Source: Perkinsus marinus ATCC 50983 (taxonomy: Eukaryota > Perkinsozoa > Perkinsida > Perkinsidae). From it: a stretch of 64,000 bases of DNA. The notes below the pieces were generated by a model. The model was given only the letters and a program-made list of their open reading frames with translations, was not told the DNA's origin and ran no database searches. Shown here in pieces: positions 4,603 through 61,998 of the stretch. The stretch covers positions 376,474 through 440,473 of the forward strand of contig NW_003206658.1 in the NCBI RefSeq assembly GCF_000006405.1, given 5' to 3'. The position numbers and the translations under genes were made by a program. Numbering within the stretch: the stretch's first letter is position 1; every line of letters begins with the position of its first letter.

Positions 4603-4621
4603 CGTCACGCGCCACGAAATT
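4603..4621 (-). repeat. 19-mer copy 1, in DNAL1 leader
   Basis: Exact AATTTCGTGGCGCGTGACG in the sense of DNAL1, 29 bp before the upstream Met codon. It is followed by ttttctgtag, a good splice or trans-splice acceptor. Confidence 0.85.
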
Positions 4622-4782
4622 AAACACAAAAAATTGCGAAAAATTCTAGGATTTATTTTATTCGATCTCGACGTAATTTTTGGTCCTAAATCACTATTGG
4701 AGTGCAGCTGAGACGTATCTTGAGGTTGACGTGAAGTCGGACAGATAGAAAGATTCCCCATCAACTCAAATCAGTAGCTTGG

Positions 4783-5419
4783 CTAATCGAACCCGTTGGG
4801 AAACTGAGGCCCTCCCCTACGTGTTGTAGATGAGCCCACAACGTAACTATCGCAAGTATTCCGTACCACACCTTCTCCAACTTCTGATTCTCGATCAATT
4901 ATAACTTCTGGACGAATCATTTGGCGGCCAATTTGACCGATCCACGACTCTCTTTCTGCTGGGGTGTCGGCGATAAGGTAAAACACTCTGGTCGACGAGT
5001 CCACTCTGGAGAAAAAATTTGGAAAAATTTTTTCCTGTCCTCGCTACTTGAAGGAATTCGCTTGTCCGGTTTCCTCATCTGCTGACTTCACAGAAGAGCA
5101 TGATCGCAATAGTAGAGCTTCGGTTGGATATGCTAAGGCACCTGATAGAGGAAATCTTCGCTGTGCGGTAACGACGTATCTTGAGGTTGAGATGGTAAGA
5201 TACGAAGTAGGTCGGGTGGAAAAGATCCTCCCCACTACCTTTGGTCGAGAAACTGCAAAGCAGGTCTTTGGTGAGCACCAACCAGCGCCTTTTCCACTGT
5301 AGTAGATGCTTGCTTTGCTTCATCACGAATCCTGCCTTCACTACGTCAGCAGGACTGAGCACGACACTTCGTGGGTCGATGTGGTCCCTCGTGGAAGAGG
5401 TCAAGGAGAAATTGAACAT
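4783..5419 (-). CDS. Small PH-domain protein
   Basis: Three exons, 5419-5239, 5141-5048 and 5005-4783, give a 165-aa protein that is mostly one pleckstrin-homology domain. The exons join without frame problems: VVKAGFVMKQSKHLLQWKRR then WLVLTKDLLCSF; YPTEALLLRSCSSVKSADEE then TGQANSFK; and RVFYLIADTPAERESWIGQI with the invariant PH Trp in the final helix. The KQSKHLLQWKRRW strand pair is basic, as in phosphoinositide-binding members, so membrane recruitment is likely but not shown. The tail is Gly/Ser/Arg-rich and unstructured. Intron 1 carries a complete GTATCTT foldback. DNAL1 starts about 200 bp downstream on the same strand. No further domain is visible, so no specific gene name is given. 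Confidence 0.85.
5175..5214 (-). repeat. GTATCTT foldback element in PH-gene intron 1
   Basis: CGTATCTT and AAGATACG flank a 13-15-nt loop containing GGTTGAGATGG and are followed by AAGTAGGTC. The whole element sits between the donor at 5238 and the acceptor at 5142, in the orientation GACCTACTTCGTATCTT relative to the gene. Confidence 0.75.
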
Positions 5420-5462
5420 GAAAAACTATGGAAATTGGTCGAGTGACAACGTGATGGTGCGT

Positions 5463-5481
5463 TGTCGCGCGCCATGAAATT
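5463..5481 (-). repeat. 19-mer copy 2, upstream of PH gene
   Basis: AATTTCATGGCGCGCGACA in the sense of the PH gene, 44 bp before its start codon; variant at three or four positions. Confidence 0.7.
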
Positions 5482-5882
5482 AAGCGCGCGCCCTGGAATA
5501 TGTATTCGATGTCGGTTCGTGTGTGTAGTTGAGACATGAAGGAACGGAAGCTAAGCCACTTCAATAGGAGGGGGGAAGAGGAAGCTGAAAAGCTATGGAA
5601 AGAGAAATGTAGTATTTTGAATCGATTATGGAAATTTTTTTACAATTTTTTTTAATGTTTGGTTTTTTTACGGAAAAAATGCGGAATTTTGCGAAAATTT
5701 TTGAAAAAAATGAACTTCTACTAGGATCTGCCAGTGACAACATTGTGGTGAACCTTGTCAGGCTCGGCAGAGGCGTCGAGAGAAGCTGCTAGACGTTACT
5801 TGAAGTCTTCAGTTCGTGTTGGGGGTATGCACAGTGGAAAAGTTGATTATGAAGACAACGAAAGAGTAATAATAATACTATA

Positions 5883-5991
5883 ATGGACTTTCACCTGTTT
5901 TATGTGAATTGGCGTAATACTCTGTGAAAAAATCCGGTAGTCGCGGAATATGTTTTTTACTAGTGTTTTTCATATCACTAGGGTGAAACTC
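5883..5991. mobile_element. MITE family B, copy 1
   Basis: A foldback element of about 110 bp. It starts near ...TTTCACCTGTTTTATGTGAA and ends ATCACTAGGGTGAAACTCCA, sharing the internal CTCTGTGAAAAA and GTAGTCGCGGAATATG blocks with the other B copies. Confidence 0.75.
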
Positions 5992-6303
5992 CAATTTTGT
6001 CACTTTTGTTGGAAATATTTCGGTGATTTCCATTATTATCATCATACCATCTTTCTTTCACATCATGGCAACATGCTCAGGTATTCTCTCCAGTGAATGT
6101 CCCGTCTACGGTGTTAGCCTCTAGACGCGCCGTCCTCGACAGTGTTAGACCTAAGATACTCGATCACTCGCCGAAGTCGTGGAATATCAGTAAGATTGTT
6201 GATATTCTTTATAACGTGATGAAGCGGCTGAGCTCCGTTGGTGTATATCTATTCATTAGAGTGAAAATAATGAGCTTAAAATGTCTAACGCTGTGGACAT
6301 TGG

Positions 6304-6656: not shown

Positions 6657-6675
6657 AATTTCGTGGCGCGTGACG
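6657..6675 (+). repeat. 19-mer copy 3
   Basis: Exact AATTTCGTGGCGCGTGACG, nine bases before the proposed ATG at 6684. Confidence 0.85.
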
Positions 6676-6683: not shown

Positions 6684-9338
6684 ATGGGGAGTGAATTTGC
6701 AGTTTGCTTGGCATTAGGTGTGAAGACGGATGAGAAGCCTGTTAGGAAAGATTTGAGAAAGCAGTTGTTGATGGTTCGAGCGGGGCTCATGGACCAACCA
6801 GTGGTAGGTAATGGACCTCATCTGAATCTTACCGCGGGGGCAGGATTTGTATCTTTTTGGTCCAGGATCGATTTGTGTTAATATGTCCGGTTTTTCCCGC
6901 AAAAAAATTGCGAGAATTATTTTTTCCCTTTGTAGTGGAAAACGAATTCGAACGACAAGGAGATTTCAGTCGCCGATTTCCCCTCAACTTTTTCACGAAA
7001 AGAGCGGAATATAATTCGACACGTCGGTATGGTCACTGGAAAGGGACCAGTGGGGAGTCTCACGAAGCGATGGTTCAACTTGGTGGATGAGAAAGGTAGG
7101 GGAGGGGAATAATGAGAAAAAATTTCGACATTTTTTTTGAGGAAAAATTTTTTCGGCCGCTTTTTTGAATAGTGTGGGAGAATATGCACATGGTCAACCG
7201 CATATTGGAATTTCGAGGAAAATTTTGGAAAATTTTCCTGATTATTCTTGCACGTTTTTACCCGGATTCGTATGTAGACTTTCATAGCTAGTGAGGGCGA
7301 TGTTGGGTCTCGGGTGAACACCGATGTGCAAGGCATCTGCCCTTTTTGCTTCATAGAGTGGACATGATGAAAGTAGACATGTGAAAGGCTGAAGCTGATC
7401 ACTCGATAGTTAATGTGCATCGATGCAAGTCTGACTAGGCCGTGCTGTCGTAGTGGGCGTTGGACTTTCAAAGTGTTCAAATTTTTTCAAGAAATGCCAC
7501 CGTGAATCGCAAAGGGTGAATCCAGTTTGGTATGTAAATGTGGGTTTTATATTCCGGGAGTGATGATAGTGAAAACTAGTCTCGAAAGGTTACTTTTATC
7601 ACATCACATTTTCATAACAATGTTTATAATATTCATGCGATATAGTTTCAGATCGATTCTCATTTTGCATATCAAATTGACAAGCACTGTATACTGCTAT
7701 ATTTGATGCATGGTGACCATCTATAGAGACTAGAAGTGTGAATAGATTCTTTTCACGATTTGATACTGACGAGTGGGGGCGCGAAATCGAATACTAGGCA
7801 TAATTCGTGACGAAGGGGCGAAGCTCGTATCTTTTGATTGAGCTGTTGGGAAATGATGATCGTTGTGGAGATGTGATGAGCAAAATTGATTTTCAATTGC
7901 GCTGGTCGTGGTCATTTGAAAGTCATAGATCTCGGATCGCTCATCAAACTCTACCCTGGAATTAGTATCCTCTTGCTGCGCTCGCTCCGGTATCTGGTTT
8001 TAGTGGTGGAATTTTCCATTTTGCATTTATGGCAGTGACGTGTTATGTTGTGGTAATATAGGGTTGTACCACTTAATGTCGGTGGAGTTCAGCAAGGAGT
8101 GGTATGAGTGTCGGTCTCCTCAGGTGCCAGTCGCCACAGTGCGAACCCTGAGAATGACTTCATCGGATCGTGGGATATCTCCTCTAGCACGTGTCAGCCT
8201 GCTGACGTTGATGCTCGATTGAAGGCGTTTGTGAAGGCTGAGAAGAGGAGGATTAGAATGAATGGTGATGTCGATGTTCATGTTAATAGTGAAACGTATA
8301 GGAGGTAGTAGTGGGTGGAAATCTTGAAATCTTGCGCTCTCTTGCTATTTCTCAACGGTGAGTGATATGTGGGGGCAGTGTTGGAATATATGTTCGCTTT
8401 CCTCAGCTGAGCTCAGAAGTGAGGTTCCTCACTAGTTTTTATACGAATTCGGGTAGAAGTGCCCAGACACGAACAGGATTTTTCCCGGAATTTCCTCGAA
8501 ATTTTCGTATTGTTACCAACACATATCAACACAAGTTGACCATGTTCATATTTTTCACACACGAACTGTGTAAGGGTTCTCATTTTTAACATTTTTTGCA
8601 ATCGATTTTGGAGTAAGTGTGTTGAGAGTTGAATCTTGGGTATCTTGCTCTCACTTGCATTTCCTCAACGCTGTTCAGTCCTGAAGAACAAGTGGTGGAG
8701 TTGCAGGAATTGGTTAGGGAGAAAAAACGGCAGTATGCTGATCTTAGGGGGGAGTTCATAAGAGAGCTCAGGAGGGAGGTGGGATATGATGTAATTTTTC
8801 GCGCGCCACGAAATTATTGATCAGTTCCCTCATGCGTCGTTGATGAGGCTGGAGGCGATGGCGAGGCGGCTATTGGATGAGAAACTGCTGTCTGATGAGA
8901 AGGTGGGTTTGTGATGTAAAAAGCGCGCGCCATTCTGATCGATTTGGGTTTTCGTGAAGGAGATCGACTGTAGGGCTCACAGTTTTGTCCATGTTCAGAA
9001 TCGGCGATATCCGATCGCACGCGAGAGCTTCCGCCCGAATCTCTCATTGACAACGCAGGATAGGAGGTAGGTCAGCATTTGTGATGGGGAAATTTTGCGG
9101 AAATTTTCCGAGAATTTTCGGGAAAATTTCAATCGAGGTATCGCGAGCATCACCATCCGGGAACGTTTGGTATGATGGAGATGGAGGGAAGGGAGGCGTG
9201 GTCGTGTTGTTTGAATTACGACCAGGCGAGTCGAGGATGCGAGTGAGTGACTTCTGGTGAATTTCGTGGCGCGTGACGGAGTTCTGTGGTAGGTATAGGG
9301 TTGTTAACCCAGATGCTTGGTGTTTGTTGGGATTTTGA
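6684..9338 (+). CDS. Unrecognised multi-exon protein, charged/coiled-coil middle and Cys-rich C-terminus
   Basis: Supported exons: 6684-6803 (LALGVKTDEKPVRKDLRKQL), about 8123-8307 (LKAFVKAEKRRIRMNGDVDV), about 8673-8778 (EEQVVELQELVREKKRQYAD, a predicted coiled coil), 8825-8902 (FPHASLMRLEAMARRLLDEK), about 9171-9242 and 9293-9338. The last two join to read EAWSCCLNYDQASRGCEYRV then VNPDAWCLLGF and stop. Two introns are fixed by continuity, 8779-8824 (46 nt) and 9243-9292 (50 nt), and both carry the 19-mer in opposite orientations. The longer introns hold MITEs. The W-x-CC-x6-S-x-GC C-terminus looks metal-binding. I do not recognise the protein. It ends 123 bp before SMNDC1 on the same strand. 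Alternatively the 5' exon belongs to a separate gene. Confidence 0.5.
7169..7297. mobile_element. MITE family A, copy 2 (truncated)
   Basis: AGTGTGGGAGAATATGCACA then TGGTCAACCGCATATTGGAA, followed by degraded internal sequence up to TAGCTAGTGAGG. Confidence 0.7.
7528..7693. mobile_element. MITE family C-like, degraded copy
   Basis: Ends in TTGGTATGTAAATGTGGG and GCATATCAAATTGACAAGCA then CTGTA, matching the subterminal repeats of the family C elements. The interior differs. Confidence 0.5.
8377..8572. mobile_element. MITE family A, copy 3
   Basis: GCAGTGTTGGAATATATGTT then CGCTTTCCTCAGCTGAGCTC at one end and CAAGTTGACCATGTTCATAT at the other, about 195 bp. It lies in an intron of the unrecognised (+) gene. 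Confidence 0.8.
8799..8815 (-). repeat. 19-mer copy 4 (antisense, in 46-nt intron 8779-8824)
   Basis: TCGCGCGCCACGAAATT within an intron whose splice joins ELRRE to FPHASL in phase 0. Confidence 0.8.
9260..9278 (+). repeat. 19-mer copy 5 (sense, in 50-nt intron 9243-9292)
   Basis: Exact core in the middle of an intron that starts gtgagt and ends gtggtag. TGACG lies 17-18 nt before the acceptor, where a branch site would be expected. Confidence 0.85.
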
Positions 9339-18500: not shown

Positions 18501-19803
18501 ATTTGAGGAAGCGAGTGGGACGATTGCGAATTTTGTGGCGCAGTGACGTTATTCCCTCTACAGAGTCTCGAATTTGGCTGATAGACTCCAAGGGTCTGGT
18601 CAGTACGGATCGCCAGACGAGTATGAAATTGCGAAGGGCAGAGCAAAGTGAGTCTGGAAGCGAGTTGCCCTTCGCTCCGCTGAGATATTTCTTCGAATTT
18701 AGATACCGTGTGAACTATGTGCAGCCACCAATGAAATGTGGCAAGAACGATCTCCTCTCGGTGTGAAGGAGGTCAAACTACAGTGTTGATCGGGTAGGAA
18801 TATCCTCATGTTGAGCGAGAAAGATACAAAATAGGCTAGGATTGAGCACTTTCTTTCAGGGTATCAGCCCAGAGCGGATTGTTTTCCTCTGAAGTTCTTC
18901 AAGCGATGAATGCCAACTGCGAGTACCCCATCGTGTTCAGTCTGTCCAACCCGACCAATTGCTGTGAGTGCACTGCTGAGGAGGCCTATAGGGCCACTGA
19001 CGGCAAGTGCTTGTTCGCCTCTGGAAGCCCCATGCCGGCCTATCGTAATCATCACACGCTGGTGTCATTGTTGTTGTTGTGACTCAACACCCTCAGACGT
19101 GCCCACGCAGAACTCCTACAAGCTGAGCTCGCGTGTGTTCCCCGAAACTGATGAGCATTTCATTCCGGCGCAAGCTAGCAACATGTACGATAATCCATTT
19201 AACTACTCATACTTGGATGATGTTCGGTTTTGGATTGATGAATACCTGCGAGTCAGGTACGTGTTCCCTGGCATCGGCTTGGCAGCGTCAACAGGGAATC
19301 TCGCTACTATACCGAACCAGCTCTTTTACATCGCTGCAAGTGAGTGGAAGACCTCTCATGATTCGCCTTCAAATGAGCTGTGGGTATTTTTCTCTTCGTT
19401 ACTACTGCGAAGTGATAACTGGTTTCAACATGAGGAGCTTGATCTTCGTACTGTCCTTTGATAAGCATACCATTATTCGGCTATCAAAGGCAACTTGGGA
19501 AGGAAACGCCGATGGTGTTTTGCCATGACTTTTGGTCTCATCTCAGGAACGATCGCGTCGATGGTCACAGTGGAGGAGATGAAGACGAGGACGCTTCTGC
19601 CGCCTATGTCAAAGCTGAGGGAGACTGCCTGTAAAGTGGCCGCCCAATGCATCATATACGGGTCCAAGAAGTAGCGAGCTTCAAAATGTCGCGCGCCACG
19701 AAATTGTAGTTCACTGTTACTCGCTCTTCAGGGGGTTGACGAGAATCCAAACGCCTTTGGATGCTGAAGTGTTTGTCAAGTCCAAGATGTGGTATCCCGA
19801 GTG
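15533..19803 (+). CDS. Malic enzyme (malate dehydrogenase, decarboxylating)
   Basis: Exons in order carry [47 protein letters not shown] then [190 protein letters not shown], and [20 protein letters not shown] with stop TGA at 19801-19803. It converts malate to pyruvate, CO2 and NAD(P)H. The catalytic Lys (VGK), the metal ligands (WED, NDD) and the Rossmann GAGGAA are present. The Tyr of the usual VYTPTVG is Phe (VFIPTVG). Proven introns are 1391 nt (16159-17549), 49 nt (18515-18563) and 61 nt (19671-19731). Cofactor and compartment cannot be told; no clear targeting peptide was seen. Confidence 0.92.
16159..17549 (+). other. 1.39-kb intron of malic enzyme
   Basis: Splicing GTVGDV to CKQFGS in phase 2 fixes both ends. 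It is nearly thirty times longer than neighbouring introns. No ORF or known MITE was recognised. It holds a strong hairpin, GTTTCCCAG-tcggg-CTGGGAAAC, at about 16440-16462. Confidence 0.7.
18069..18086 (-). repeat. T-arm-like motif in malic-enzyme intron (antisense)
   Basis: Reverse complement of GGGATCGAACCGGGGTCG, ten bases after the donor that follows NSI; the intron joins into [10 protein letters not shown]. Confidence 0.6.
18529..18548 (+). repeat. 19-mer copy 6 (sense, in 49-nt malic-enzyme intron)
   Basis: AATTTTGTGGCGCAGTGACG inside intron 18515-18563, whose splice restores [16 protein letters not shown]. Confidence 0.85.
18804..18836 (+). repeat. Half foldback element in malic-enzyme intron
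   Basis: TGTTGAGCGAGAAAGATACA then AAATAGGCTAGG, the AAGATAC half of the GTATCTT family. Confidence 0.5.
19688..19705 (-). repeat. 19-mer copy 7 (antisense, in 61-nt malic-enzyme intron)
   Basis: GTCGCGCGCCACGAAATT inside intron 19671-19731; the splice restores [12 protein letters not shown]. Confidence 0.8.
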
Positions 19804-23250: not shown

Positions 23251-23263
23251 GTTATGTTTATAA

Positions 23264-23675: not shown

Positions 23676-26635
23676 TCAGACTGCTGTCCTCCTATACAAT
23701 ACTGAGAGACCGCCATCCCTATACTCCTCACGAGTCAACCATACTCGCTTGAATGAGCTCAGACTTGATACCACACTTCCGCCAACCCACGCTGAGAGCT
23801 TCCCTGAACCTCGACTACGTCACGCGCCACGAAATTACCCCCAATGCGACTCACGCTCTGGAGGGGCGCAGATTTTAATTCTTGCATCCTTCGGAACCAA
23901 CTTGCGCATTTCCGACAAAAGCCTCTCGCCGAACCTTCAGCACAATCACGTACAGTACGCGACATGTAAAACGCGTAATTCTTATCATACCGGTTTTTCC
24001 CGAACCACATCTACTTTTGAGCTAATTTCTCCACCGAGCATTTCAGATATACATAACCTTTGCAAAAAGTGTTTCAGAATCTCGTGAGAGTGAAACTCAA
24101 TTTTGAGTGAGAATTCCGGAATCAAATCTTGCACAAGTACGGTTAACATCATCAATAATCAGTAGGTCAAAATTGACCAGTGGAGCCTGGAGAAAAATAT
24201 GACGGTTTTAGACACTCACGGTGTGGGGCTACAATTTTTTGAGAGAAGTGCAGCCCGCGAGGTTTCGAAACAGCCTCTATACCGAAATCTAAGTATCAAA
24301 CCCCTTTCCTGACTCACCCTGGGAATAACGTACTGCCACCAGCGAGAACCTACAACACGGAAAATTCAAATCTTGCGAAACGCTCTAGAATTTCGGTAAC
24401 TTCACATTATCTATTTTCATATCGGGACACGCGTTAAAGAACTCGTCGATCTTCACCAGACTGCCTTACTCGATCACATCCCACTTAAAGGCAATGTTGG
24501 AGGAATATATGTTCCCTTTCCTCAGCTGAGCTCTGGTAAGAGTGTACAGAAACCACCAAAAATTTTGTCAAATTTCCTCATAATTTTCTTATTATCACCA
24601 ACACACACACTTGACCATGTGCATATTCCGACTCCTACTTCAAAACTCTTACCACATTTTGCAGCAGCGTTCGCCTTAGATCCATATCGCTCTTCTGTAT
24701 GGCCTCATCCAGTAGCAGATGCACACCCTGGTCCGCCGAGGCCGCCATTGCTGAGGACATATCTACCCTATATACCACAGAAAAGGAGGAGGGGACACCC
24801 ACTGGGATTGAATATTATCTCCGGGGCTTGGAAACGCTCAAGGCCGATGTTGATTATAGAACCATCTGGGAGTTCATACTGAACATGAGAAGATTTGGCA
24901 CTCATACGCGACCAAAACATTTTTCATTTTTTCGGTCACCAAATTGAACAATATAGTTTCGCCCGTTTCACGTAATACTCTGTGAAAAACGCGATATTCG
25001 TGGTGATATGTAGTAGTCGTGGAATATATTTTTCACTAGTGTTTCTCATATCACTAGGGTGGAACTCCATTGTGTTCAAAAGTGCGCAAAAATATTCTTT
25101 TCGAAAATCCAGTCCGTGGCACATTTAAAGAGTAAAACCATTTTCAGGGAATTCCAATCATTCGCAGTGGTTTTGATTGCCACGTAAATTTGGATCTCCA
25201 CATTACACGTAGTGTATATTCTGCGAAAACCGTTTCAACAACCTCACACATTTCTCTGGTATAAACAAAAGAATAAGATCAATTCTCGCTGTAACAACTG
25301 AGCAGTCGAGCCCACCGTGTGATCCAATGTTTGCTTAGTGCCAGCCCTCCTGGGGTCCCTGTCGAACTCCCACTCAGTGCCACCGCGCCATGCCCTTTGC
25401 ACGGCTGGATGCAGGGATACGGCACAACAATCTTCCTTCATAGTGCGGACTATCTAAGGTTGCTATCATCAAGATTCAGAATAGGCCCAAAAATGACCCA
25501 CCTCTCGATCCGCCGTAGATAGCAAATGCACTCCACACTGCCTTTTGAGCGACAACTGCAGCCACTCAGTAACGCTCCTGACCATGCAAGGCTACACAGA
25601 TGAGGACAGAGGCTCGAGCACCTCCCAGCTGATTCACCACGAGTGGCCGCATGCCCTACTGCATACCCCTCATAGACAGGCATAACCTAAATCGGTGAAT
25701 GTATGTAGATGATATTCAGAACGTGATGGGAAGACCTGTGCTACGCCGTCACCGATGTCCAGCACCACTCCAGTAGTCCGACCAGATGCATACAGAGAAA
25801 GAACAGGAGAGCAGGCGATGTGGATGGCTGGTACCTGCACACTGCTGCTAACCGAAAAGTCGTGGGTTCGAATCGGAGGGGAATCATCCAGCAAACTCGA
25901 CCCATTTTGAATTTTCCACCTATGGCTAGGAACACATTCTTCAATCAGTTTCCCATGTAAATGTCATCACATTAGAAACATTCTCACGTTGTTATCAAAC
26001 CCTGGGGACGTTATTTCGCAAAGCCAGATGGGTCCCCGGCAAGTTACCTTAAAGACTTCGAAGAGACATTCTGCCAGCTTCTCACGGTGAATCATGGGAT
26101 TCAACGGCGGCTCGCTTATCAGTACCTACCACGCCAGCAGCAATTCTTTTGTAGCTGTAATAGTTGCATAAACCAAAGCTCTACCGGATGCTCCTGAGAC
26201 CTGCACTTTAGCCCTTCACTGAACACATGTCGCCATATGTGTTCCATGCCCTCCCAATCAGTAACACTGCCATGCGTAATAGGATACTGTATATCCAACA
26301 ACCCTCGGGAACTGGTCTCGAGTCGACTTCCTACTACTGCCACCACCTGCTCGGGTACGTCAACTATGCAAGATTATAAGGCTCACCTTATTCCCAACAG
26401 AACCGCCAATTTTGCTGCCCTTAGTCGGCTTGGTCACTTCCGATGGCCCCTCAACACCCTCCATCACTTTACGGTACTTAGGGTAGCCCACAGCTGAGAG
26501 TATTTGGACCTAATCCGTGCATGTCACTGGGGGCACGAAATGAATCTTTGCCACCTGGGGTGAATTCTCCCCCGAAAATCCAGCCTTAATACACCCGCTG
26601 CCATTGTCGATCACTACTGGCTGATTGCCAAGCAT
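23676..26635 (-). CDS. ACTR1: Actin-related protein 1 (centractin), dynactin filament subunit
   Basis: Start ATG 26635: [20 protein letters not shown], the actin-fold phosphate loop. Exons continue [33 protein letters not shown] then [135 protein letters not shown] then PPER; and [20 protein letters not shown] then [14 protein letters not shown] with stop at 23676. The [17 protein letters not shown] and [12 protein letters not shown] blocks match Arp1 better than actin or Arp2. It forms the short dynactin filament that links dynein to cargo. The region about 25080-25660 (after YEGYA) was not resolved. Introns hold MITEs A7 and B4, a T-arm-like motif and the 19-mer. Confidence 0.85.
23819..23837 (-). 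repeat. 19-mer copy 9 (sense, in 51-nt Arp1 intron 23854-23804)
   Basis: Exact core; the intron starts gtgagt and ends ggttcag, and its removal restores [13 protein letters not shown] in phase 1. Confidence 0.9.
24493..24630. mobile_element. MITE family A, copy 7, in Arp1 intron
   Basis: CAATGTTGGAGGAATATATG then TTCCCTTTCCTCAGCTGAGC, ending CACTTGACCATGTGCATATT. It sits between the [12 protein letters not shown] and [11 protein letters not shown] exons. Confidence 0.85.
24952..25069. mobile_element. MITE family B, copy 4, in Arp1 intron
   Basis: AGTTTCGCCCGTTTCACG to CACTAGGGTGGAACTCCA, sharing TATTCGTGGTGATATGTAGT with other copies. Confidence 0.85.
25858..25876 (+). repeat. T-arm-like motif in Arp1 intron (antisense)
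   Basis: GTCGTGGGTTCGAATCGGAG, just upstream (in gene sense) of the exon beginning VPAIHIA. Confidence 0.55.
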
Positions 26636-29049: not shown

Positions 29050-29850
29050 GTGCACTGCATCGAAACAAATTTCCCCGGGCCAAGTGCCCCGTGTCAAGAA
29101 GTGCTTCGCAGATTGGTTCGCAGCAATCACATTGACGACCAACACTGACGCTGCTGAGCAACTCACCTGCAGTGAAACCGTCACGCGCCACGAAATTATC
29201 ATGCCCTGTTACTCACCACCAGCCACATATAAAGCTCAGCAACCACTTTCTCGCGCGGAGGCTTTAGTGTAACACCGGGGTATTCACCGTAGATGAGAAA
29301 CGTACATGCCTGTATCGTTATGAAGGCCATCGTACCTCAGCGTTGGAGGAATATACAGTGCGTGTCAATTTGATACGCGAATGTGCGTTATTTCGAACGA
29401 GGTTAATGAGAATCAATGCGAAACTATATCGCATATCTAATGTAACGATGGTTATGAACATGTGTTGTGATGAAAGTACCCGTTTGGGACTGTGATAGCG
29501 ACAACTTGTTCACTAAAATTTATCCTCTAAAATAACACACACTTGCATATCAAACTAACACGTACTGTATCTTTGCTTTCCTCAGCTGAGCTCAAGAGTT
29601 CCCTCACTAACTATCAAAGTTTCTACACGAAATGTACAAAAACAAAAAGAAACTCCGAAAAATTTCCCACATGTGAGCGACCATGTGCATATTTCCCCCT
29701 ACACTGTTGTCCCTACTTGCAATGACATGTCCAACAAACCTCAACAAGCACAGCTTGGTGCTGGAGGGCGGCTGTGACATACGACGTCGATAGCGAAGGG
29801 CATAAGTAGGCTTAGGCTCCCTCCCCTCTGCCATGGGGATATCTAACATA
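29050..29850 (-). CDS. Fragmentary (-) gene with a 19-mer intron
   Basis: An exon ending VTLKPPREKVVAELYMWLV (to about 29213) is followed by a textbook 50-nt intron, gtgagtaac...ctgcag, carrying the 19-mer. A hydrophobic exon follows (SCSAASVLVVNVIAANQSAK). Another open piece lies upstream (MLDIPMAEGREPKPTYALRY, 29849-29700), next to MITE A8. I do not recognise the product, and linkage of the pieces is assumed. Confidence 0.3.
29179..29197 (-). repeat. 19-mer copy 10
   Basis: Exact core, sense to the fragmentary (-) gene, in a 50-nt gtgagt...cag interval. Confidence 0.8.
29340..29706. mobile_element. MITE family A, copy 8, interrupted by a family C element
   Basis: GTTGGAGGAATA | family C 29356-29567 | TCTTTGCTTTCCTCAGCTGA. 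The far end reads CGACCATGTGCATATTTCCC then CACTGTTG. The A element is split at its TATA, which fixes the order of insertion. Confidence 0.85.
29356..29567. mobile_element. MITE family C, copy 1 (212 bp)
   Basis: Inverted ends CAGTGCGTGTCAATTTGATA and AACTAACACGTACTG, flanked by TA on both sides, as in Tc1/mariner-type MITEs. Nearly identical to copy 2 over GTAACGATGGTTATGA and TGTGTTGTGATGAAAG. Confidence 0.85.
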
Positions 29851-31645: not shown

Positions 31646-32200
31646 TTACATTACAATGTAGCCCACCAGCAGGACGATAAGCACCACGAACACATAGAGT
31701 ACAGCCATACCATCACTCTGGTNNNNNNNNNNNNNNNNNNNNNNNNNNNNNNNNNNNNNNNNNNNNNNNNNNNNNNNNNNNNNNNNNNNNNNNNNNNNNN
31801 NNNNNNNNNNNNNNNNNNNNNNCATTCTGGTTCATACCACACCTCTTTGAAACGAACTCGGAATAAACCACGACTACTCGTGAGAACACTGAACTATCAG
31901 CTCCTCTCACTTTGATCCCCTCCTTGCAGGAGGTCGTTGATGATAGTATCAAACGTTTGAAACATTAGCACTCCCACGAACATGCTGAGGGAATGCCCAA
32001 TCATCTGGTACGTCCTCAAGCATAGTCTTGTCGTATTCACAGCCCAGAATAACACCAACACATACGACAGCATTCCATACAGTACCAAGGCAACAGCAAG
32101 CTCGTCGTTTCTCTCATCAACGACAGTCGGGGTGTCTGTGGGCATGGCAGACGAAGAAGAGAAACGATCCGATGTATTCACGCCTTGCGTAATTTCGTGG
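31646..32200 (-). CDS. Multi-pass membrane protein (interrupted by assembly gap)
   Basis: The exon at 32181-31897 has acidic N-terminal sequence (TPTVVDERNDE), then hydrophobic LAVALVLYGMLSYVLVLFWA, a CLRTYQMIGH motif and GHSLSMFVGVLMFQTFDTII. After the 100-N gap (31723-31822) the last exon reads AVLYVFVVLIVLLVGYIVM-stop, another membrane helix, with TAA at 31646-31648. Upstream, a cgcaag acceptor near 32182 is preceded by an antisense 19-mer. I do not recognise the family, and the start is unknown. Confidence 0.5.
31723..31822. other. Assembly gap (100 N)
   Basis: A run of N inside the membrane-protein gene. A round 100 usually marks unknown length. Confidence 0.99.
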
Positions 32201-32209
32201 CGCAGCGGT
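32191..32209 (+). repeat. 19-mer copy 11
   Basis: AATTTCGTGGCGCAGCGGTC, antisense to the membrane-protein gene, next to a putative acceptor. Confidence 0.7.
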
Positions 32210-32325
32210 CATGTCCATAACGTCATAAAACCCGTGCCGAATTTATTCAACACAAGCCTAATCCACGAGGGCCAAGAAAACCATCACAATTTATTCAGCA
32301 ATAGTATACATCTAGAGAGGATCAT

Positions 32326-34632
32326 CGTCGTCGATGGTGACGGTACTTCTCCCCGGCATCCCACGTGTCACCACTATCCCTACTCTCCACCACTGCTCGA
32401 ATCATCTCATATGCATCTCGATCTTGCAGCATCGCTCCGCCCTAAAAACAATACTTTTTTTCGACGGACCCATCATATAACAGATGGACACAATCGGACC
32501 TAATTTGTATCTTACCACGATGAACCTAAGATACGCACCCTCCTCTTACCGTAGCATTCTTGATCAATGTAGCCGCCTGCACGAACTGAATAAAAGCCTT
32601 GTCCTTCCCCCGCAATTTTATCCGCGGTAACGGCGGTAACTTCTCCTCACCAACATCGTCGGCCCCATCGCCATCAACGGCCCTCAATACCTTCACCAAA
32701 TCGATCGCCGTGGCGGGCGCGGGTGGCACTGCATGCCCAGCTTGCTGCAGTTGAAAATGCACAAGTGGCAGCAAAATCGACTCCACCGTTTTCCGCACCG
32801 CTGGATGCGATTCAATCAGCCTCTTCACATCGCTCGAAATCGGATTTCCACTTCTATCAGCATTCTGATTCTCCTCCGCAACAAGCGTCAACAACGCGGC
32901 CATCGTTCTCGATGATCTCGGCATTCCCGACAGATGTGCCAACGCGCTTTGCAGTGCCCTCACAGGGCTCTCAGCCGCCGAGGGATTTACCCTCACAAAC
33001 AGCGGGGGCTCCGGCAGCTCCGGTGGGGGGCCCTGATGGGGGGCTGCGAACATCCCCATATGCATATGTTGGGCCGCTGCTGCTGCCGCTGCCCAAGGCG
33101 ACATGCCTGCCCTCACTGCTCCTAACGCCGATTGAGGCAGCCCTCCCAAGGGCGACCCAAACCCTGCCGCTGCCGCCGCTGCCGCTGCTGCTGCCGCTGC
33201 GTGGAAGGACGGGGACATGCCCATAGGCCCAAGGGCACCCTTGCCACCCTTTCCTACACCACCACCCTTCCTATGATGCACCAATGGAGGGCTGTAGGGG
33301 GCAGCTAGCATGGCCGGCCGGTACAGAGCCCCAGGGGGCCTACGAGAAGCAAAAGGCCCGCCTTGGACCATCTCAGATGGCGCGGGGGAAGGCTGCGGCT
33401 GCTGCTGTTGCTGGACACCCGTAGACTGAATAGCAACAACAACAACAACCACGTCACAATCCAGCGTCAATATTGTATCCCTTTTCAATGCGGCCACAGC
33501 GATGGCGAAACTAGAGCGGTATTTCCCATCTAGTGCATATTTTCACAGAAACAAGCACATGGTCAACTACATGTGCTGCTGACATATGAAAATTCCTACC
33601 AGATTTTGGTTTCCCCACACCCCTGCCCCAAATGCATAGGCAATAGTGAGGAAGCTCCTGAACTCAGCTGAGGGAAGCGAACCTATATTCCTCCAACACT
33701 GCGCCTGGCCACCCTCGGTTTTTCTACGCATTTACACTGAATGGCGCTCACCCACATCTACCGTATCAAGTCGGCATCATACGCTATGAGCAACCGTGTT
33801 GGCAAGTATGTTCGGTTTCCTCAGCTGAGCTCGGGAAGTATCACTACGACTCGAAAAAAGCCGACGAGATTTTACCACACTTTCCTCAAAACTTCCAACA
33901 CGCGTATTTGAGGATCGAGTGAGTATTTTCGAATGAAAATGAACAACGAAGACTAAAAAATATGAGCTTTCCCAGAACCGGCAGCTGAACGTTGAATTTA
34001 ATCCTATGATGGATTCATGAGGGGTCCGCTGATGACCCCTCCAGCTTCCCCAACAAGAATAGCAGTGGGGCGGCGTCCCAAGTCAATACTACTACCATTG
34101 TCTGTTGGTAGGGCATCGGGGCGGTCGTTGTTGCCAGTCCTACTCGGCCGTCCATCGAGACTTTGAAGTCATTGTGGCAGTGGACTTGGATGAATCTCTG
34201 TAACCTATAAGAAACCACTCGTCAGTGGGCAGCGTTCATACCGTCACGCGCCACGAAATTGACTGCCTACGACCTGGACTTAACAAGGAACAGAGGGATT
34301 CGACTCTCACCGAGTTTCCATAATTCACTCTCGTTCAGTGAAAAGGCGAATTAGATAAAACATCACATACGCCGAGGGGAGATTCAGCCTCACCTCATTC
34401 CCATTCTAGGTAGCATAGTCCCAACAGTAGGATCCGTCTCGAGGACTCCTATAGGGATCCCTTCCCCACCACTATTGGCAGACCATCGACCCACAGCGTC
34501 CCGTATGGACAGCTTGATCTGCTCTACTATGGCCCCTGAGGCAGCAGGGTCAGTAGGGGGGAGAGGGGGGCCACCGGTTGGGTAGTTGCCTGGAGGGCTG
34601 GGACTCCCTCCAGGAGGCATTGGTGAGGACAT
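32326..34632 (-). CDS. Ala/Pro/Gly-rich low-complexity protein
   Basis: Gene model: first exon 34632-about 34396 (MSSPMPPGGSPSPPGNYPTG; VEQIKLSIRDAVGRW; GIPIGVLETDP), an exon about 34206-34090 (LQRFIQVHCHNDFKVSMDGR), the large exon 33497-about 32550, and a last exon 32440-32326 (GGAMLQDRDAYEMIRAVVES, then RHHRRR-stop). The large exon has Gln/Pro runs, two poly-Ala tracts, MHMGMFAAPHQ, and conserved-looking helices (LFVRVNPSAAESPVRALQSA; SDVKRLIESHPAVRKTVESI). It looks like a nuclear or RNA-associated scaffold; no named domain was recognised. Linkage of the 34-kb exons to the large exon is assumed from strand, spacing and style. MITEs A10 and A11 lie between them. Confidence 0.55.
32504..32535 (-). 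repeat. GTATCTT foldback in Ala/Pro-rich gene intron
   Basis: GTATCTTA-ccacgatgaacc-TAAGATAC is an 8-bp perfect stem, with CGGACCTAATTT before it as in the other copies. Confidence 0.75.
33532..33701. mobile_element. MITE family A, copy 10
   Basis: TAGTGCATATTTTCACAGAA then ACATGGTCAACTACATGTGC, ending TATATTCCTCCAACACTG. Confidence 0.8.
33797..33840. mobile_element. MITE family A, copy 11 (fragment)
   Basis: CGTGTTGGCAAGTATGTTCG then GTTTCCTCAGCTGAGCTCGG only. Confidence 0.65.
34242..34260 (-). repeat. 19-mer copy 12
   Basis: Exact core, sense to the Ala/Pro-rich gene, upstream of the ttcttatag acceptor of its second exon. Confidence 0.8.
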
Positions 34633-37847: not shown

Positions 37848-38990
37848 TCAAGTAGCAACGGAATGGTCATGCACACTATGGCCACCCATGCGGACGATCT
37901 CATTCCGGAGCTTCTCCGTTTCCTCCGAGTTAGGCCCATCGGAAGTGGCCCGGGCTCTGGCGGCGAAGTCCATATACCAAGTAGTGATGGCTAGTCGATC
38001 AAGGTCTCCTGTCACTGGAAGCACCTGACTAGTAGCAATCAGAATTTCGTGGCGCGCGGTCAAGCTGGCTACCTCATGTGGTACTCGATCGCTGAGGAAA
38101 ACTAATAACCGGCCGCCTTTCGGGCAGATATCCGTTGCGACTTCCGAGCCATCTTCTGCAGTGTGGAATACCCGAAGTGCCTGTGACCAGAGGGAATGCG
38201 ATTTCACAAAGGAGTGGTATGAGCCCTACACCTCCATGACTACTCATCTCCCAACTATCAGGATTGAGATATACCATCACCGTCAAGATTCTCCCATCGT
38301 CAATGGGATTATCGATATGCCGAATATATCGCGCGACCGCGTTACCACTTCCTATACCTAGCAGAGTAGGGTGCCAAGTACGAACCCGAGAATTTGGTGG
38401 CGCGCGATCATTATCAGATAGGTCACCTGGATAGACAGCTATCATGGAGCTCTGTGCCACCACCGTGTCCACTTCCTCCAACGCTGGACATCTTTTATTT
38501 CGAACCAAATTCTGGACGATACCGTCCATACCTGAACACGCTCATATTTGAACCGGCATGGAGTGTAGCCATGACCTGCTCTCAACCACTTGTAACTGAT
38601 CGGACAGTCGTCATCCTCAGGAGACAGCCATCGCACAAAGTCCCCTCGGGAGCTCTCTTCAACGTATCTGAGCTACAGCCTCTACAGTACTGCGAGAGCA
38701 TCTCTAGCAATGACTTCATATTCTGACCAGACCTGCCGCCTCCCATCCTTCCTCTCTGGAAATTGGCCTCCCCTGAGCCGACTCCAATTTATTCAATCAC
38801 CGACAGTTCGAACCCACCAGAGTGATATCGGTCCATCCAGAGGGACCGCATCCTCCCAACAGCATTCATGTCGATGAAGCCCTCAACGACCGCCCATCCC
38901 CGCTCAGCCAAAGCCTCCGCCAGAGCCGCTGACTGACTCGCGGTCAAGGCCGGAGGGCATCCTCATTCCGGGTCTTCTTCGTAGCCTGTC
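37848..38990 (-). CDS. EGLN/PhyA-type prolyl 4-hydroxylase (2-oxoglutarate/Fe oxygenase)
   Basis: Exons read ALAEALAERGWAVVEGFIDM then NAVGRMRSLW (about 38965-38810), SSMIAVYPG, IGSGNAVARYIRHIDNPIDD then GRILTVMVYLNPDSWEMSSH, ALRVFHTAEDG, GGRLLVFLSDRVPHE and VLPVTGDLDRLAITTWYMDF then AARARATSD, with stop at 37848. All catalytic residues are present: HxD in RHIDNP, the distal His in PHE, and the Arg of RLAITTWY that binds 2-oxoglutarate. The order matches EGLN/PHD enzymes. In protists the same family (PhyA) hydroxylates Skp1 in an oxygen-dependent way, which is the likely role. Introns proven by continuity are 49 nt, 48 nt (38072-38025) and 69 nt (38426-38358); the last two carry the 19-mer antisense. 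The extreme N-terminus and the 5' start are unresolved. Confidence 0.85.
38043..38062 (+). repeat. 19-mer copy 13 (antisense, 48-nt EGLN intron)
   Basis: AATTTCGTGGCGCGCGGTCA; removing intron 38072-38025 restores SDRVPHEVLPVTGD. Confidence 0.85.
38391..38410 (+). repeat. 19-mer copy 14 (antisense, 69-nt EGLN intron)
   Basis: AATTTGGTGGCGCGCGATCA; removing intron 38426-38358 restores IAVYPGIGSGN. Confidence 0.8.
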
Positions 38991-39018
38991 AAGGGCAGCC
39001 TTCAACAACCACCATCTC

Positions 39019-50926: not shown

Positions 50927-50986
50927 GTGGTGAATTAGTTATGATGATCATGATGATAAGTAGACAACACACATCAAAGTCTTGGG

Positions 50987-51005
50987 TTTTTGTGGCGCAG
51001 TGACG
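50987..51005 (+). repeat. 19-mer copy 15, in mL41 leader
   Basis: TTTTTGTGGCGCAGTGACG, then gaacattttcaag, an acceptor 16 bp before the ATG. Confidence 0.75.
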
Positions 51006-51033: not shown

Positions 51034-51460
51034 ATGCCTCTTCGTCGGTCGAACGTCCTCCTCTCCAAACTGGGCCCATCAAAGGTAACTGTCACATCTG
51101 TTTTCTCGTTGGATTGATTTCTCAGGGACGAGGACCATTGACTGCCAAGAGAGCGCCGAGTCTTCGGAAAGGGTTTGGTAGCATCGGACTTGGAACACAC
51201 ACTAAGAAAGGTAAGTCCACCAGTGTGGTAGGTGGACGGCTTCATGACTGTCAGGTTTCTTCATGATCGACCCGAGATTCGTCCCTCAGTTCAAAGTCCC
51301 CGACCTGACTGATTGCCCGGTAGGCGTTAATTTCGTGGCGCGCGGTCACGGAAATAGTGAGGCAAAGTTGTTGCTTTAGTTGAAGCCTTACGTCTCTCGA
51401 CAGACGCCTGTGATTAATAACGCGAGGGGATTCTGGCCTGGTGGGAAAATCAATCCATGA
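51034..51460 (+). CDS. MRPL41: Mitochondrial large-subunit ribosomal protein mL41
   Basis: ATG 51034: MPLRRSNVLLSKLGPSK | GRGPLTAKRAPSLRKGFGSI then GLGTHTKKG | FFMIDPRFVPQFKVPDLTDC then P | LKPYVSRQTPVINNARGFWP then GGKINP-stop (TGA 51458-51460), about 90 aa. GxHTKKGxF, VPxFxVPDLT and LKPYV are the mL41 hallmarks. Introns are 41, 44 and 60 nt; the last (51320-51379) contains the 19-mer. Acts in the mitoribosome; imported, with a basic N-terminus. Confidence 0.9.
51329..51350 (+). repeat. 19-mer copy 16 (sense, 60-nt mL41 intron)
   Basis: AATTTCGTGGCGCGCGGTCA then CG; the intron joins DLTDCP to LKPYVS. Confidence 0.85.
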
Positions 51461-59900: not shown

Positions 59901-60469
59901 CAAGATACGGAATAGGTCGATTACAACAAGATACGGAATAGGTCGATTACAACAAGATACGGAATAGGTCGATTACAACAAGATACGGAATAGAGCTCCT
60001 ACAACGTAAGATACGGAATAGGTCGATTACAACAAGATACGGAATAGGTCGATTACAACGTAAGATACGGAATAGGTCGATTACAACAAGATACGGAATA
60101 GGTCGATTACAACAAGATACGGGATAGGTCGATTACAACAAGATACGGAATAGGTCGATTACAACAAGATACGGAATAGGTCGATCAACAAGATACGGAA
60201 TAGGTCGATTACAACGAGATGCGGACGATCGAACAAGAGCAATTACCTATTTTAAGTAGGGGAGCGATGACATCCTTTCCACTTTTATCATACACTAACA
60301 CCTTCCACTGCGTGCTAGCTTCCGACAATGGGTCCGTTACTCGGCCTCCTGAACAGCGTTGAGGAATAGCAAGATTGCAAGATGACGAATACCTACCACT
60401 ACTATCTCCGACTGACAGATTGAGCATCCGTACAAGAGATGCCCTCTCCGCCTCTTGGAGGTTCAACAT
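56951..60469 (-). CDS. SCFD1: Sec1/Munc18 protein SLY1 (ER-Golgi SNARE regulator)
   Basis: ATG 60469: LNLQEAERASLVRMLNLSVG, then TQWKVLVYDKSGKDVIAPLL, ALRHHGVTLYLQLDD, VPVVYFIDPTRDNIDRLVND, KLYDQ-VYVNFTSRVSDDLL, INRIAKVVDRYCAFVALSPS, TDEAIEECIDRIVNGLLSML, RPVLILLDRDMDLATMLHHT then WTYQ, SHKTYDLDSSDAFFVDHANM then PFPAVASDV, LPQMTEMKRSLDEHTNIASA, TWDQSLSDKLRAALVFVLRK, DTLITRIVSELMEQ, DYEYFDPRA, QAIVFMVGGGNYIEQ, and SVIYGATDFVSPSAFCKELE then TLGMEK-stop at 56951. The order and spacing match SLY1 end to end. It binds syntaxin-5 and the ER-Golgi SNARE complex. Intron 60246-59841 (406 nt) is almost wholly a 26-bp tandem repeat; a 50-nt intron at about 59590-59640 carries a T-arm-like motif. Confidence 0.92.
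57891..57908 (+). repeat. T-arm-like motif at a SLY1 splice boundary
   Basis: GTCCCAAGTTCGATCCCTGG on the strand opposite SLY1, overlapping the start of the TWDQSLSD exon; partly coding, so weaker evidence. Confidence 0.35.
59590..59639 (-). repeat. 50-nt SLY1 intron with T-arm-like core
   Basis: Intron gtgggcc...ggtgacag joins KLYDQ to VYVNFTSRV. Its 3' half is TCCCGGGTTCAAATCTCGG, able to form a 5-bp/7-nt T arm, ending eight bases before the acceptor. Confidence 0.75.
59842..60226. repeat. 26-bp minisatellite filling a SLY1 intron
   Basis: About 14 copies plus a degenerate one of a 26-bp unit, AAGATACGGAATAGGTCGAT plus TACAAC, spaced exactly 26 bp in most of the array. One internal junction (about 59993-60010) repeats the intron's 3' splice site plus six exon bases (CTACAACGTAAG with GAGCTC). 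The unit resembles half of the GTATCTT foldback found in other introns. Confidence 0.95.
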
Positions 60470-60699
60470 AGTCGTATGATAAAAAAAGTGAAAACCCGAA
60501 AACAATGAACTCTCCCTGAGATCTGTACACTTCAACGCAACCAGTGACTACAGACCGTGACTAAGTAAACCAGTAACTATAGTATGGAGGTCAACCCGTG
60601 TACACTAATATGACAAGTTTGATGACAACTCTAGTGCTGCAGGGTTCCTCAATATCACCGAAGAACTAGTGGTAATCGCGAGCTAAGGACCCCTCCACC

Positions 60700-61060
60700 A
60701 AAGCGACTTCCGTAACATTGCCTGTCAATGCAATGAAGCCGTAAAGCGGCTTTGAACGCTTCCCTGATGGTATCCGCGCTTCCCGACCCTGCACGACGAA
60801 GTAGCTGCAAATACCTCTACCACTACAGGGCTACTACCTGGACCTTCCTACGACCGTTCACATACACACACAGAGTACCGTCCTCTGGGCATGTGATAGC
60901 AACCTAGCGTTCATATTGATCACCATAGCCATACCACACTCTCACCAAATCTCCGGCTTTGAGATCTCCTGATGTCCATCCACATAAACTGGCGCCTTCA
61001 TCGGGCACGTGCAACCATCCATCTGAGTCCACCCACCTGAAAGCCAACCCGGGTAGTGAT
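60700..61060 (-). CDS. Possible SPRY-like fragment
   Basis: (-) frame WVDSDGWLHVPDEGASLCGW then TSGDLKAGDLVRVWYGYGDQ, followed after an in-frame stop by VAITCPEDGTLCVYVNGRRK. GDxVxVxxD...GTLxVYVNG is typical of SPRY-type sandwiches. An intron or a lesion separates the two halves. Start and ends unknown. Confidence 0.3.
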
Positions 61061-61219
61061 GACTACTAGGCTCAGCCTAGTCGAGCCTCACACGCACGTT
61101 GGGACAGTAGCAAATTGATTAACCCTAGCATCGAGCCATGGAATAAGTTAGAGATTGAGCAATACCAGCCGAGTAGTCTGTTACTACCAGGAGTGCTCCT
61201 CTAAATGTGTATTCAGGTT

Positions 61220-61966
61220 CGACGACTTCACTAGGATCTTCGGGTCATCTGGTGTGACTCCAATATGGATACCTACGCAGAGGTCCCGGGTTCGAATCCT
61301 GGTCTAGACAAGTTGCTAGAAGCTCATACGATACGACCGGATACAGGATGGATAGGGTGAATGAGAAGCTCATTACCTCCCCAGCCAGTGACTGTTTTCT
61401 TGATCTCATACTCGACACTCCTGTTATAGCCGTTGATACTCAAAGGAAAAGAGCAGAAGACAATCTGGTGAAGAGGGGAAAGTCAAAGCTCCACACCTGG
61501 AGACCCCGAGTTCGATTCTTGGGAGCAGTACCCAGTCCATTTCGTTACGCCACTATTACCGATTCCAACCAGTCATTCAAAACTGAGATCCCACATTTCC
61601 GAGCTGTCTTCTTGTGATCCTCCAACTCTATTAGCTTCCCTCTGGGCTCCTCCGCGAAAGAGAGTGAACGCATATCTACACAACATGGCGCGTATTACTC
61701 TGCTGTATAAACATATAAACAATTGGAAATCAGCGAGTCAGACGCTCATTCTGATGAACAGCACCTGTAGATCCTACGAGAACTACTATGATGGAATGTT
61801 TCAAGTAGTGAATTCCATCCACACCATTTTGTCGAAAAACCAACAGGTTGATGGCAGTTACGAATCCTATCACCGATCACTACCATACAACGAGTTGCTC
61901 TGCCTCGCGAGGTCAGGATACCCAACTGAGGTTCGATGTCCACTAACAGCTGAGGATAATGCCTAG
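61220..61966 (+). CDS. Unrecognised (+) gene with two T-arm-like introns
   Basis: Exons join without frame breaks: FDDFTRIFGSS | VARSSYDTTGYRMDRVNEKL then ITSPASDCFLDLILD...EDNLVKRGK | YPVHFVTPLLPIPTSHSKLR then SHISELSS, running on to SYESYHRSLPYNELLCLARS and stop at about 61964. Introns are about 61 nt (near 61253-61313) and 47 nt (near 61475-61522). Each contains a perfect 5-bp/7-nt T-arm-like hairpin, CCGGG-TTCGAAT-CCTGG and CCGAG-TTCGATT-CTTGG. The 5' exons were not found. No family recognised; no membrane segment. Convergent with the U-box gene. Confidence 0.5.
61286..61303 (+). repeat. T-arm-like motif in 61-nt intron
   Basis: CCCGGGTTCGAATCCTGG; the upstream bases do not form acceptor, D or anticodon arms. 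Confidence 0.7.
61502..61519 (+). repeat. T-arm-like motif in 47-nt intron
   Basis: CCCCGAGTTCGATTCTTGGG followed by AGCAG acceptor; no cloverleaf upstream. Confidence 0.7.
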
Positions 61967-61980
61967 AGGGTAACCCAGTT

Positions 61981-61998
61981 GTCACGCGCTACGAAATT
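61981..61998 (-). repeat. 19-mer copy 17
   Basis: AATTTCGTAGCGCGTGAC in the sense of the U-box gene, directly after an AAG|gtc that could be a donor; ctctag acceptor follows. Confidence 0.75.

What the first reader, a model, noticed from the sequence alone, without database searches (positions are those of the whole stretch)
4603..61998. A 19-mer (AATTTCGTGGCGCGTGACG) occurs 17 times, in short introns and 5' leaders
Copies are at 4603, 5463, 6657, 8799, 9260, 18529, 19688, 23233, 23819, 29179, 32191, 34242, 38043, 38391, 50987, 51329 and 61981, in both orientations. For eight of them protein continuity fixes the enclosing intron (46, 50, 49, 61, 51, 48, 69 and 60 nt, in the 6.7-9.3 kb gene, malic enzyme, Arp1, EGLN and mL41). 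In sense copies TGACG falls about 17 nt before the acceptor in the 49-51-nt introns, where a branch point belongs. Others lie just upstream of acceptor-like AGs before start codons. This is more than chance and unlike MITEs, since almost nothing flanks the core. It could be an introner-like insertion family, a conserved intron-definition or branch module, or an intronic regulatory site that works in either orientation.
Basis: partly seen in the sequence, partly recalled or inferred. Interest (0 to 1): 0.88.

Follow-up and report, generated by a model that had tools for sequence, protein, structure and literature searches.

The report
Dispersed DNA word in Perkinsus introns
A short, strongly constrained DNA word is scattered about two thousand times through the genome of a Perkinsus-like protist, in tiny introns and between genes and in either direction, most likely as a landing site for an unknown DNA-binding protein.

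Summary
The word is real. In the window only 6 copies of the 19-mer are exact; the '17' is a family sharing the core AATTTCGTGGCGCG (16 of the 17 listed places within 2 mismatches). The genome (54.5 Mb, Perkinsus-like alveolate) holds 578 exact cores (reversed-pattern control 0) and 1,947 within 2 mismatches (control 87). Nine window copies lie in short GT-AG introns; four of these are supported by proteins of sister species. In sampled loci the word avoids exons and is about 2.4-fold enriched in introns over other noncoding DNA. It has no fixed distance to either splice site, both orientations, unrelated flanks, no clear target-site duplication, ordinary host-intron lengths and splice sites, no first-intron or gene-start bias, and strong clustering. 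That argues against an introner, a MITE or a branch-point module. Mismatches are very uneven between positions, as expected for a recognised site. Best reading: a DNA-level protein-binding site, function unproven. Two more words of the same kind (AGCGGAGCGAAGC, 542 copies; AAGGAGTGGTATG, 257) suggest a small lexicon. The main rival is a very short dispersed repeat copied by an unknown route. Species comparison would decide and could not be run here.

The parts
4603..4621 (-). exact 19-mer, labelled noncoding, upstream of the minus-strand LRR open frame at 3708-4385
5463..5481 (-). core copy, 1 mismatch (AATTTCATGGCGCG), labelled noncoding
6657..6675 (+). exact 19-mer, labelled noncoding
8797..8815 (-). 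core exact, 3' half CGAAA; antisense in a 46-nt predicted intron 8779-8824
9260..9278 (+). exact 19-mer, sense in a 50-nt predicted intron 9243-9292
18515..18563 (+). 49-nt malic-enzyme intron holding the variant AATTTTGTGGCGCAGTGACG at 18529 (sense); intron supported by P. olseni protein P0123
19671..19731 (+). 61-nt malic-enzyme intron holding the exact core at 19692 (antisense); intron supported by P. olseni protein P0123
23233..23246 (+). weak copy of the core, 2 mismatches
23804..23854 (-). 51-nt intron of an actin-like gene holding an exact 19-mer (sense); frame joins as APPER/KLSAWVGG (actin likeness recalled); labelled intergenic by my gene finder
29167..29216 (-). 50-nt predicted intron holding an exact 19-mer (sense)
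32191..32210 (+). variant AATTTCGTGGCGCAGCGGTC, labelled noncoding
34242..34260 (-). exact 19-mer, labelled noncoding
38025..38072 (-). 48-nt intron of the Egl-nine-like gene holding the exact core at 38043 (antisense); supported by P. chesapeaki protein P0121 (16-residue gap)
38358..38426 (-). 69-nt in-frame, stop-free intron of the same gene holding a 1-mismatch core at 38391 (antisense); 23 residues missing from P. chesapeaki protein P0121 here; mislabelled as exon by my gene finder
50986..51005 (+). degenerate copy GTTTTTGTGGCGCAGTGACG (4 mismatches in the core)
51320..51379 (+). 60-nt predicted intron holding the exact core at 51329 with 3' half CGGTCA (sense)
61980..61998 (-). core with 1 mismatch, labelled noncoding

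Best explanation
The word is a double-stranded-DNA recognition site for a sequence-specific protein of this Perkinsus-like alveolate. Its layout is [not A]-AATTT followed by two tandem 7-mers, CGTGGCG and CGTGACG, the second of them tolerant. About two thousand sites lie in noncoding DNA, clustered at gene scale (0.1-2 kb), in either orientation and anywhere along a gene; introns host many because exons cannot. Shown here: number, layout, compartment bias, both orientations, floating spacing, clustering, uneven tolerance of positions. Inferred: that a protein binds it, that selection keeps it, and that the role is chromatin or transcription control spread over gene bodies rather than promoter firing or splicing.
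For: Sharp edges: about 1.6-2.05 bits at each of positions 1-14 (exactness partly by choice of the sample), graded over 15-24, at most 0.08 bit outside -2..+24 (72 copies). Uneven mismatches genome-wide: 737 single-mismatch cores (1,315 minus 578); position 6 carries 265, position 4 only 14, against 53 if even; G to A at position 7 of the same CpG is 68, while 89 of the 100 listed position-6 variants are C to T, so CpG decay alone does not explain it. Strand balance genome-wide 306/272; 17 sense and 11 antisense among 28 intron-labelled copies. Floating position: 5-33 nt from the donor and 9-41 nt from the acceptor in the 26 of 28 intron-labelled copies listed. Exon avoidance: 5 of 72 against 23.3 expected (one of the 5, window 38391, is really an intron). 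Motif-bearing introns (26) have median length 50 against 49 for 393 others, and like splice-site scores. No clear target-site duplication: best of 480 settings 5 against 2.1 at 3 bp and 3 against 0.2 at 4 bp. Clustering: 31 of the first 100 exact cores have a neighbour within 2 kb against 4.2 expected; in three genes with two copies (L035, L044, L054) the copies are of different 3' class, so not local duplicates. Within diverged duplications the word changes less than its flanks: 0 of 19 against 5 of 39 (L052), 0.030 against 0.088 per site (L039), and 88% against 31-45% identity (L040).
Against: No binding protein, no expression or chromatin data, no sister-species DNA. The word is longer and more exact than most eukaryotic binding sites need (general knowledge), and its 3' half falls into discrete classes (229 TGACG; 101 CGGT; of 578 cores), which could be subfamilies of a copied element. 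No first-intron bias (4 of 28 against 5.5 expected) and intergenic copies are not nearer to gene starts than random positions, so there is no promoter signature. Counting every copy with an intron score over 3, whatever its label, gives 33 sense and 14 antisense, a sense excess not expected of a pure DNA site; it is inflated where GT directly precedes the word, and I ran no control for it. Motif-bearing introns are somewhat shorter than a length-weighted expectation (52.1 against 57.3 nt, P 0.04), which nothing here explains. No functional theme stood out among motif-bearing genes: of 22 such predicted genes 19 were scanned and 10 of these had a Pfam match, of varied kinds. The duplication cases are few. 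Compartment labels come from my own unannotated gene finder, which made at least two errors in the window (38391 as exon, 23823 as intergenic).
Confidence: 0.55

Rival explanations
1. A non-functional short dispersed repeat: a unit of about 20 bp copied around the genome (template slippage, break repair or a mobile element that carried it), tolerated in introns and between genes, flanks long decayed.
For: High exactness in hundreds of copies; discrete 3' classes; tandem arrays with different units (C126 59 bp x 10; C104 45-64 bp; two copies 33 bp apart on C95); at least two other flankless words in the same genome, as if copying of short words were general.
Against: Uneven mismatches between positions; no clear target-site duplication; motif-bearing introns are not longer than others (mean 52.1 against 52.7 nt, where an insertion of 19 bp would give 71.7), unless introns shrink back; the word outlasts its flanks in duplications.
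Confidence: 0.27
2. An RNA-level splicing element (branch-point module or intronic enhancer).
For: 2.4-fold intron enrichment (28 of 67 noncoding copies against 11.9 expected); some sense copies put TGAC about 17 nt before the acceptor; 17:11 sense excess in labelled introns and 33:14 among intron-like copies of any label.
Against: 11 of 28 intron-labelled copies antisense, and 4 of the 9 window introns; spacing to the acceptor 9-41 nt; splice-site strength unchanged; most copies labelled outside short introns, and intergenic-labelled copies are no more intron-like than random intergenic positions (32% and 32%).
Confidence: 0.1
3. An introner-like family: whole introns of about 50 nt inserted with the word inside.
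For: Short introns of one length class hold the word; introners exist in the relative Amoebophrya (PMC7789003: section 10 and passages read) and in many aquatic lineages (PMC9860276: passages read).
Against: Intron ends are not alike, the offset floats, no clear target-site duplication, 53 of 90 copies are labelled intergenic.
Confidence: 0.06

Closest known systems
Long, high-information binding sites dispersed in noncoding DNA, e.g. meiotic pairing-centre motifs bound by zinc-finger proteins in C. elegans (motif details recalled; of the review PMC9071541 only passages and its citation of Phillips 2009 were seen)
   Same: Short exact words in many copies, either orientation, clustered, in noncoding DNA
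   Different: No binder known here; concentration on particular chromosome regions could not be tested (contigs only); no system of this kind appeared in the listings for Perkinsus
Introners (PMC9860276 passages; PMC7789003 section 10 and passages)
   Same: Repeated sequence inside short introns, either orientation
   Different: Introners share intron ends and often carry TSDs or TIRs; here only an internal 14-20 bp is shared and its position in the intron floats
Short dispersed repeats of green-algal organelle DNA (PMC3017802 passages)
   Same: Short repeats in introns and spacers
   Different: Those are organellar; here nuclear, one asymmetric word with position-specific constraint, and depleted from exons

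Membership tests
Introner | similar sequence at both intron ends across members | tested here: not met
   at most 0.08 bit outside -2..+24 (72 copies); donor offsets 5-33 nt, acceptor offsets 9-41 nt in 26 intron-labelled copies
Introner | target-site duplication or terminal inverted repeat | tested here: not met
   no clear TSD in 480 settings, 72 copies; no conserved ends in flanks. Not all introners have them (PMC9860276)
Introner | whole-intron presence/absence between relatives | not testable with these tools
   no sister-species DNA available
MITE/SINE | element longer than the word, similar over its length | tested here: not met
   apart from overlapping fetches, one 3-kb duplicate pair (L025/L047), the tandem arrays L039 and L040 (which also align weakly with each other, 72%) and one inverted-repeat pair in L052, no alignment of 35 bp or more touches a motif
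tRNA-like A box / tRNA-derived element | tRNA fold or a B box at fixed distance downstream | tested here: not met
   ARAGORN finds no tRNA at the motif in 36 loci or the window; B-box-like hits downstream at 22, 38, 42 and 87 nt only, and 9 in other placements
Branch-point / splicing module | fixed sense orientation and spacing to the acceptor | tested here: not met
   11 of 28 antisense, acceptor distance 9-41 nt; a sense excess of 33:14 among intron-like copies of any label remains
Protein-binding cis-element | orientation and position independence in noncoding DNA | tested here: met
   see the sense excess above
Protein-binding cis-element | position-specific tolerance of substitutions | tested here: met
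   265 / 68 / 14 variants at positions 6 (any) / 7 (A only) / 4 (any); the other 11 positions were not counted, and subfamilies remain possible
Protein-binding cis-element | a protein that binds it | not testable with these tools
   no binding data
Promoter element | concentration near gene starts | tested here: not met
   4 of 28 in first introns (5.5 expected); of 30 intergenic copies with a predicted gene in the locus 17 are nearest a start, median 643 nt, against 640 of 1,317 random positions, median 640 nt

The most novel reading that the evidence does not exclude
This alveolate nucleus carries a small lexicon of long, exact, orientation-free DNA words (at least AATTTCGTGGCGCG(TGACG), AGCGGAGCGAAGC and AAGGAGTGGTATG), each with hundreds of copies, the first two co-clustered, and all housed preferentially in ~50-nt introns: a gene-body regulatory or chromosome-organising code in a lineage next to the dinoflagellates, whose gene control is poorly known.
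Probability: 0.3. Interest if true: 0.82.

Novelty: new variant of a known kind. Interest (0 to 1): 0.6.

Why it matters
Perkinsids are the sister group of dinoflagellates, in which few cis-elements are known (general knowledge). A word with about 2,000 near-exact copies, lodged in minimal introns in either direction, would give a direct handle on a DNA-binding factor and on what tiny introns can be kept for. If it is instead a copied repeat of about 20 bp without ends, it would be an unusually short dispersed element. Either way the question becomes answerable from existing Perkinsus genomes.

Tried and rejected
Nematode SL1 search: no match, but the control rang nowhere, so uninformative. 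First gene-finder runs gave a poor order-4 coding model (discarded) or absurd genes made of introns (discarded); the codon model with realistic intron penalties converged. tRNA/A-box idea from the variant GTGGCGCAGCGG: no tRNA, no placed B box. Transposon-end idea from a 58-bp inverted repeat holding the word in L052: other inverted repeats with nearly the same centre point to an old inverted duplication; I saw no transposase between the arms but did not search for one. Viral collection: no exact match to an 18-mer of the word. Text search for a 12-mer of the core and its complement: two papers listed, neither on Perkinsus by title; not opened. Function theme among motif-bearing genes: none evident (19 of 22 scanned); the same scan was not run for genes without the motif. 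Rows dropped before counts: tandem arrays L039/L040 for the compartment tests (n 90 to 72), the L051 array for the third word, L001-L008 and overlapping or duplicate loci. The 3-mismatch count (4,205, control 1,440) was not used, because the reversed control differs in dinucleotides.
Full report
What was checked. The 19-mer AATTTCGTGGCGCGTGACG has 6 exact copies and 10 within 3 mismatches in the window, against 0.01 expected. The window lies at C137:376474-440473 of a 54.46-Mb, 347-contig assembly, which holds 229 exact 19-mers, 578 exact cores (control 0), 1,315 within one mismatch (control 2) and 1,947 within two (control 87). Forward and reverse copies are near balance in each of these counts. 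Ten exact cores in 64 kb against 0.68 at the genome mean show that the window is unusually rich (expectation, where I had typed 9).

Organism. The best relatives of window proteins are from Perkinsus: 70% and 62% identity to P. olseni and P. chesapeaki for the open frame at 40152-42650, 55% for an Egl-nine-like protein, 78% over 87% of the query to P. olseni for malic enzyme. The species was not determined.

Introns. I built a simple codon and splice-site gene finder on the window plus fetched loci. It converged on introns of mostly 42-57 nt with donors AG|GTRRG and acceptors T-rich YAG|GT. In the window nine GT-AG introns of 46-69 nt hold a copy, five in sense and four in antisense. P. olseni malic enzyme runs straight across two of them, and the P. 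chesapeaki Egl-nine protein lacks the residues that the other two would encode, so these four are supported independently of my gene finder; the proteins used are predictions, not transcripts.

Where copies lie. Of 90 distinct copies with at most one mismatch in the window and loci: 28 in short introns, 5 exon, 53 intergenic, 4 in long predicted introns. Without the arrays L039/L040 (72 copies): 5 in exons against 23.3 expected from the bases within 1.5 kb, and among 67 noncoding copies 28 in short introns against 11.9 expected, reached in none of 20,000 simulations. A slightly different non-redundant set gives 27 of 66 against 10.3. The loci were fetched because they hold the word, hence the local expectation. 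Copies labelled intergenic look no more intron-like than random intergenic positions (32% and 32% pass the same score), so they are not mainly missed introns. At least two labels in the window were wrong (38391 as exon, 23823 as intergenic; both are introns).

Not an introner, hardly a splicing signal. In the 26 of 28 intron-labelled copies listed, the core stands 5-33 nt from the donor and 9-41 nt from the acceptor of the best enclosing intron. Among the 28, 17 are sense and 11 antisense (two-sided binomial about 0.35, my arithmetic). Against this, over all copies with an intron score above 3, whatever their label, 33 are sense and 14 antisense; part of this comes from copies directly preceded by GT, and no control was run. 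Motif-bearing introns (26) have median length 50 against 49 for 393 others, and like donor and acceptor scores (P 0.25 and 0.16). If a 19-bp unit had been inserted into existing introns they should be about 19 nt longer; they are not, unless later shrinkage restored the length. They are even a little shorter than a length-weighted expectation (52.1 against 57.3 nt, P 0.04), which I cannot explain. Information content is at most 0.08 bit outside -2 to +24, and no clear target-site duplication is seen. First introns are not favoured and gene starts are not closer than chance.

A recognised site. Single mismatches are spread very unevenly: 265 at position 6, 68 as G to A at position 7, 14 at position 4, of 737 in all; an even spread gives 53 each. 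Both bases of one CpG would decay alike without constraint. Only these three positions were counted, and subfamilies could imitate part of this. The word reads as AATTT + CGTGGCG + CGTGACG, two tandem 7-mers of which the second varies: TGACG in 229 and CGGT in 101 of 578 cores; a one-base longer spacer occurs with GCGCA. In diverged duplications the word changes less than the flanks (L052, L039; L040), and a 96%-identical duplicate pair keeps it. These are few cases.

Clusters. 31 of the first 100 exact cores in contig order have another within 2 kb, against 4.2 expected. In three genes with two copies (L035, L044, L054) the copies are of different 3' class, which argues against plain local duplication. 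Tandem arrays with different units of 59 bp (C126) and about 45-64 bp (C104) also carry it.

A lexicon? An 11-mer scan of 309 kb, filtered for unrelated flanks, returned fragments of this word, plus AGCGGAGCGAAGC (542 exact in the genome, 277/265, control 1), AAGGAGTGGTATG (257 exact, 132/125, control 2), a tRNA-type B box that probably belongs to SINE-like elements, and several weaker 11-mers not followed. Both new words show intron enrichment (11 of 22 noncoding copies against 4.6; 7 of 13 against 3.8). The second word clusters with itself (19 of 97 within 2 kb against 3.8) and with the first (15 of 97 against 4.0); the third does not cluster with itself (2 of 48 against 0.9) and is only weakly near the first (5 of 48 against 2.0, P 0.05). 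These Poisson tests ignore clumping.

Known or new. One paper in the library holds both 'Perkinsus' and 'introner' (the Amoebophrya paper, passages and section 10 read). The listings of the other searches showed no description of this word; apart from the papers named in this report I opened none of them. Most subscription papers are not in that library, so absence is not shown.

Verdict. The best-supported mechanism is a DNA-level protein-binding site (0.55); a very short dispersed repeat is the serious rival (0.27). Function is not shown.

Noticed in passing
window 18669 (-), 47097 (-); genome-wide: Second flankless word AGCGGAGCGAAGC: 542 exact copies, strand-balanced, 11 of 26 sampled copies (up to 1 mismatch) in short introns (6 sense, 5 antisense), clustered and near the first word.
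   Followed up: partly
window 8094 (+), 38209 (+); genome-wide: Third flankless word AAGGAGTGGTATG: 257 exact copies; a one-base variant (GAGGAGTGGTATG) forms a 35-bp tandem array at L051 7782-8062; 6 of 7 intronic copies sense, so it may include or touch a donor site.
   Followed up: partly
window 59730, 18070 and 13 other sampled places: GGTTCGATCCC, a tRNA-type B box (recalled consensus), in 8 of 15 places soon followed by a run of at least four T: perhaps a dispersed tRNA-derived SINE family.
   Followed up: no
window 5880-6000, 11963-12104, 23257-23390, 30441-30574, 31256-31373, 31519-31660: Dispersed repeat of about 120-140 bp sharing words such as GCGGTGATATGCA, also in many fetched loci.
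   Followed up: no
window 40152-42650 (-): 833-aa open frame joining an AMP-binding domain, a carrier (PP-binding) domain and ankyrin repeats; close relatives in P. olseni and P. chesapeaki.
   Followed up: partly
window 37848-39803 (-): Egl-nine-like gene; the P. chesapeaki relative bears PF01753 (MYND zinc finger) plus PF13640/PF13661 (names of these accessions recalled).
   Followed up: partly
L025 and L047 (C8 and C18): 3-kb segment duplicated at 96% identity; both copies keep the word exactly.
   Followed up: partly
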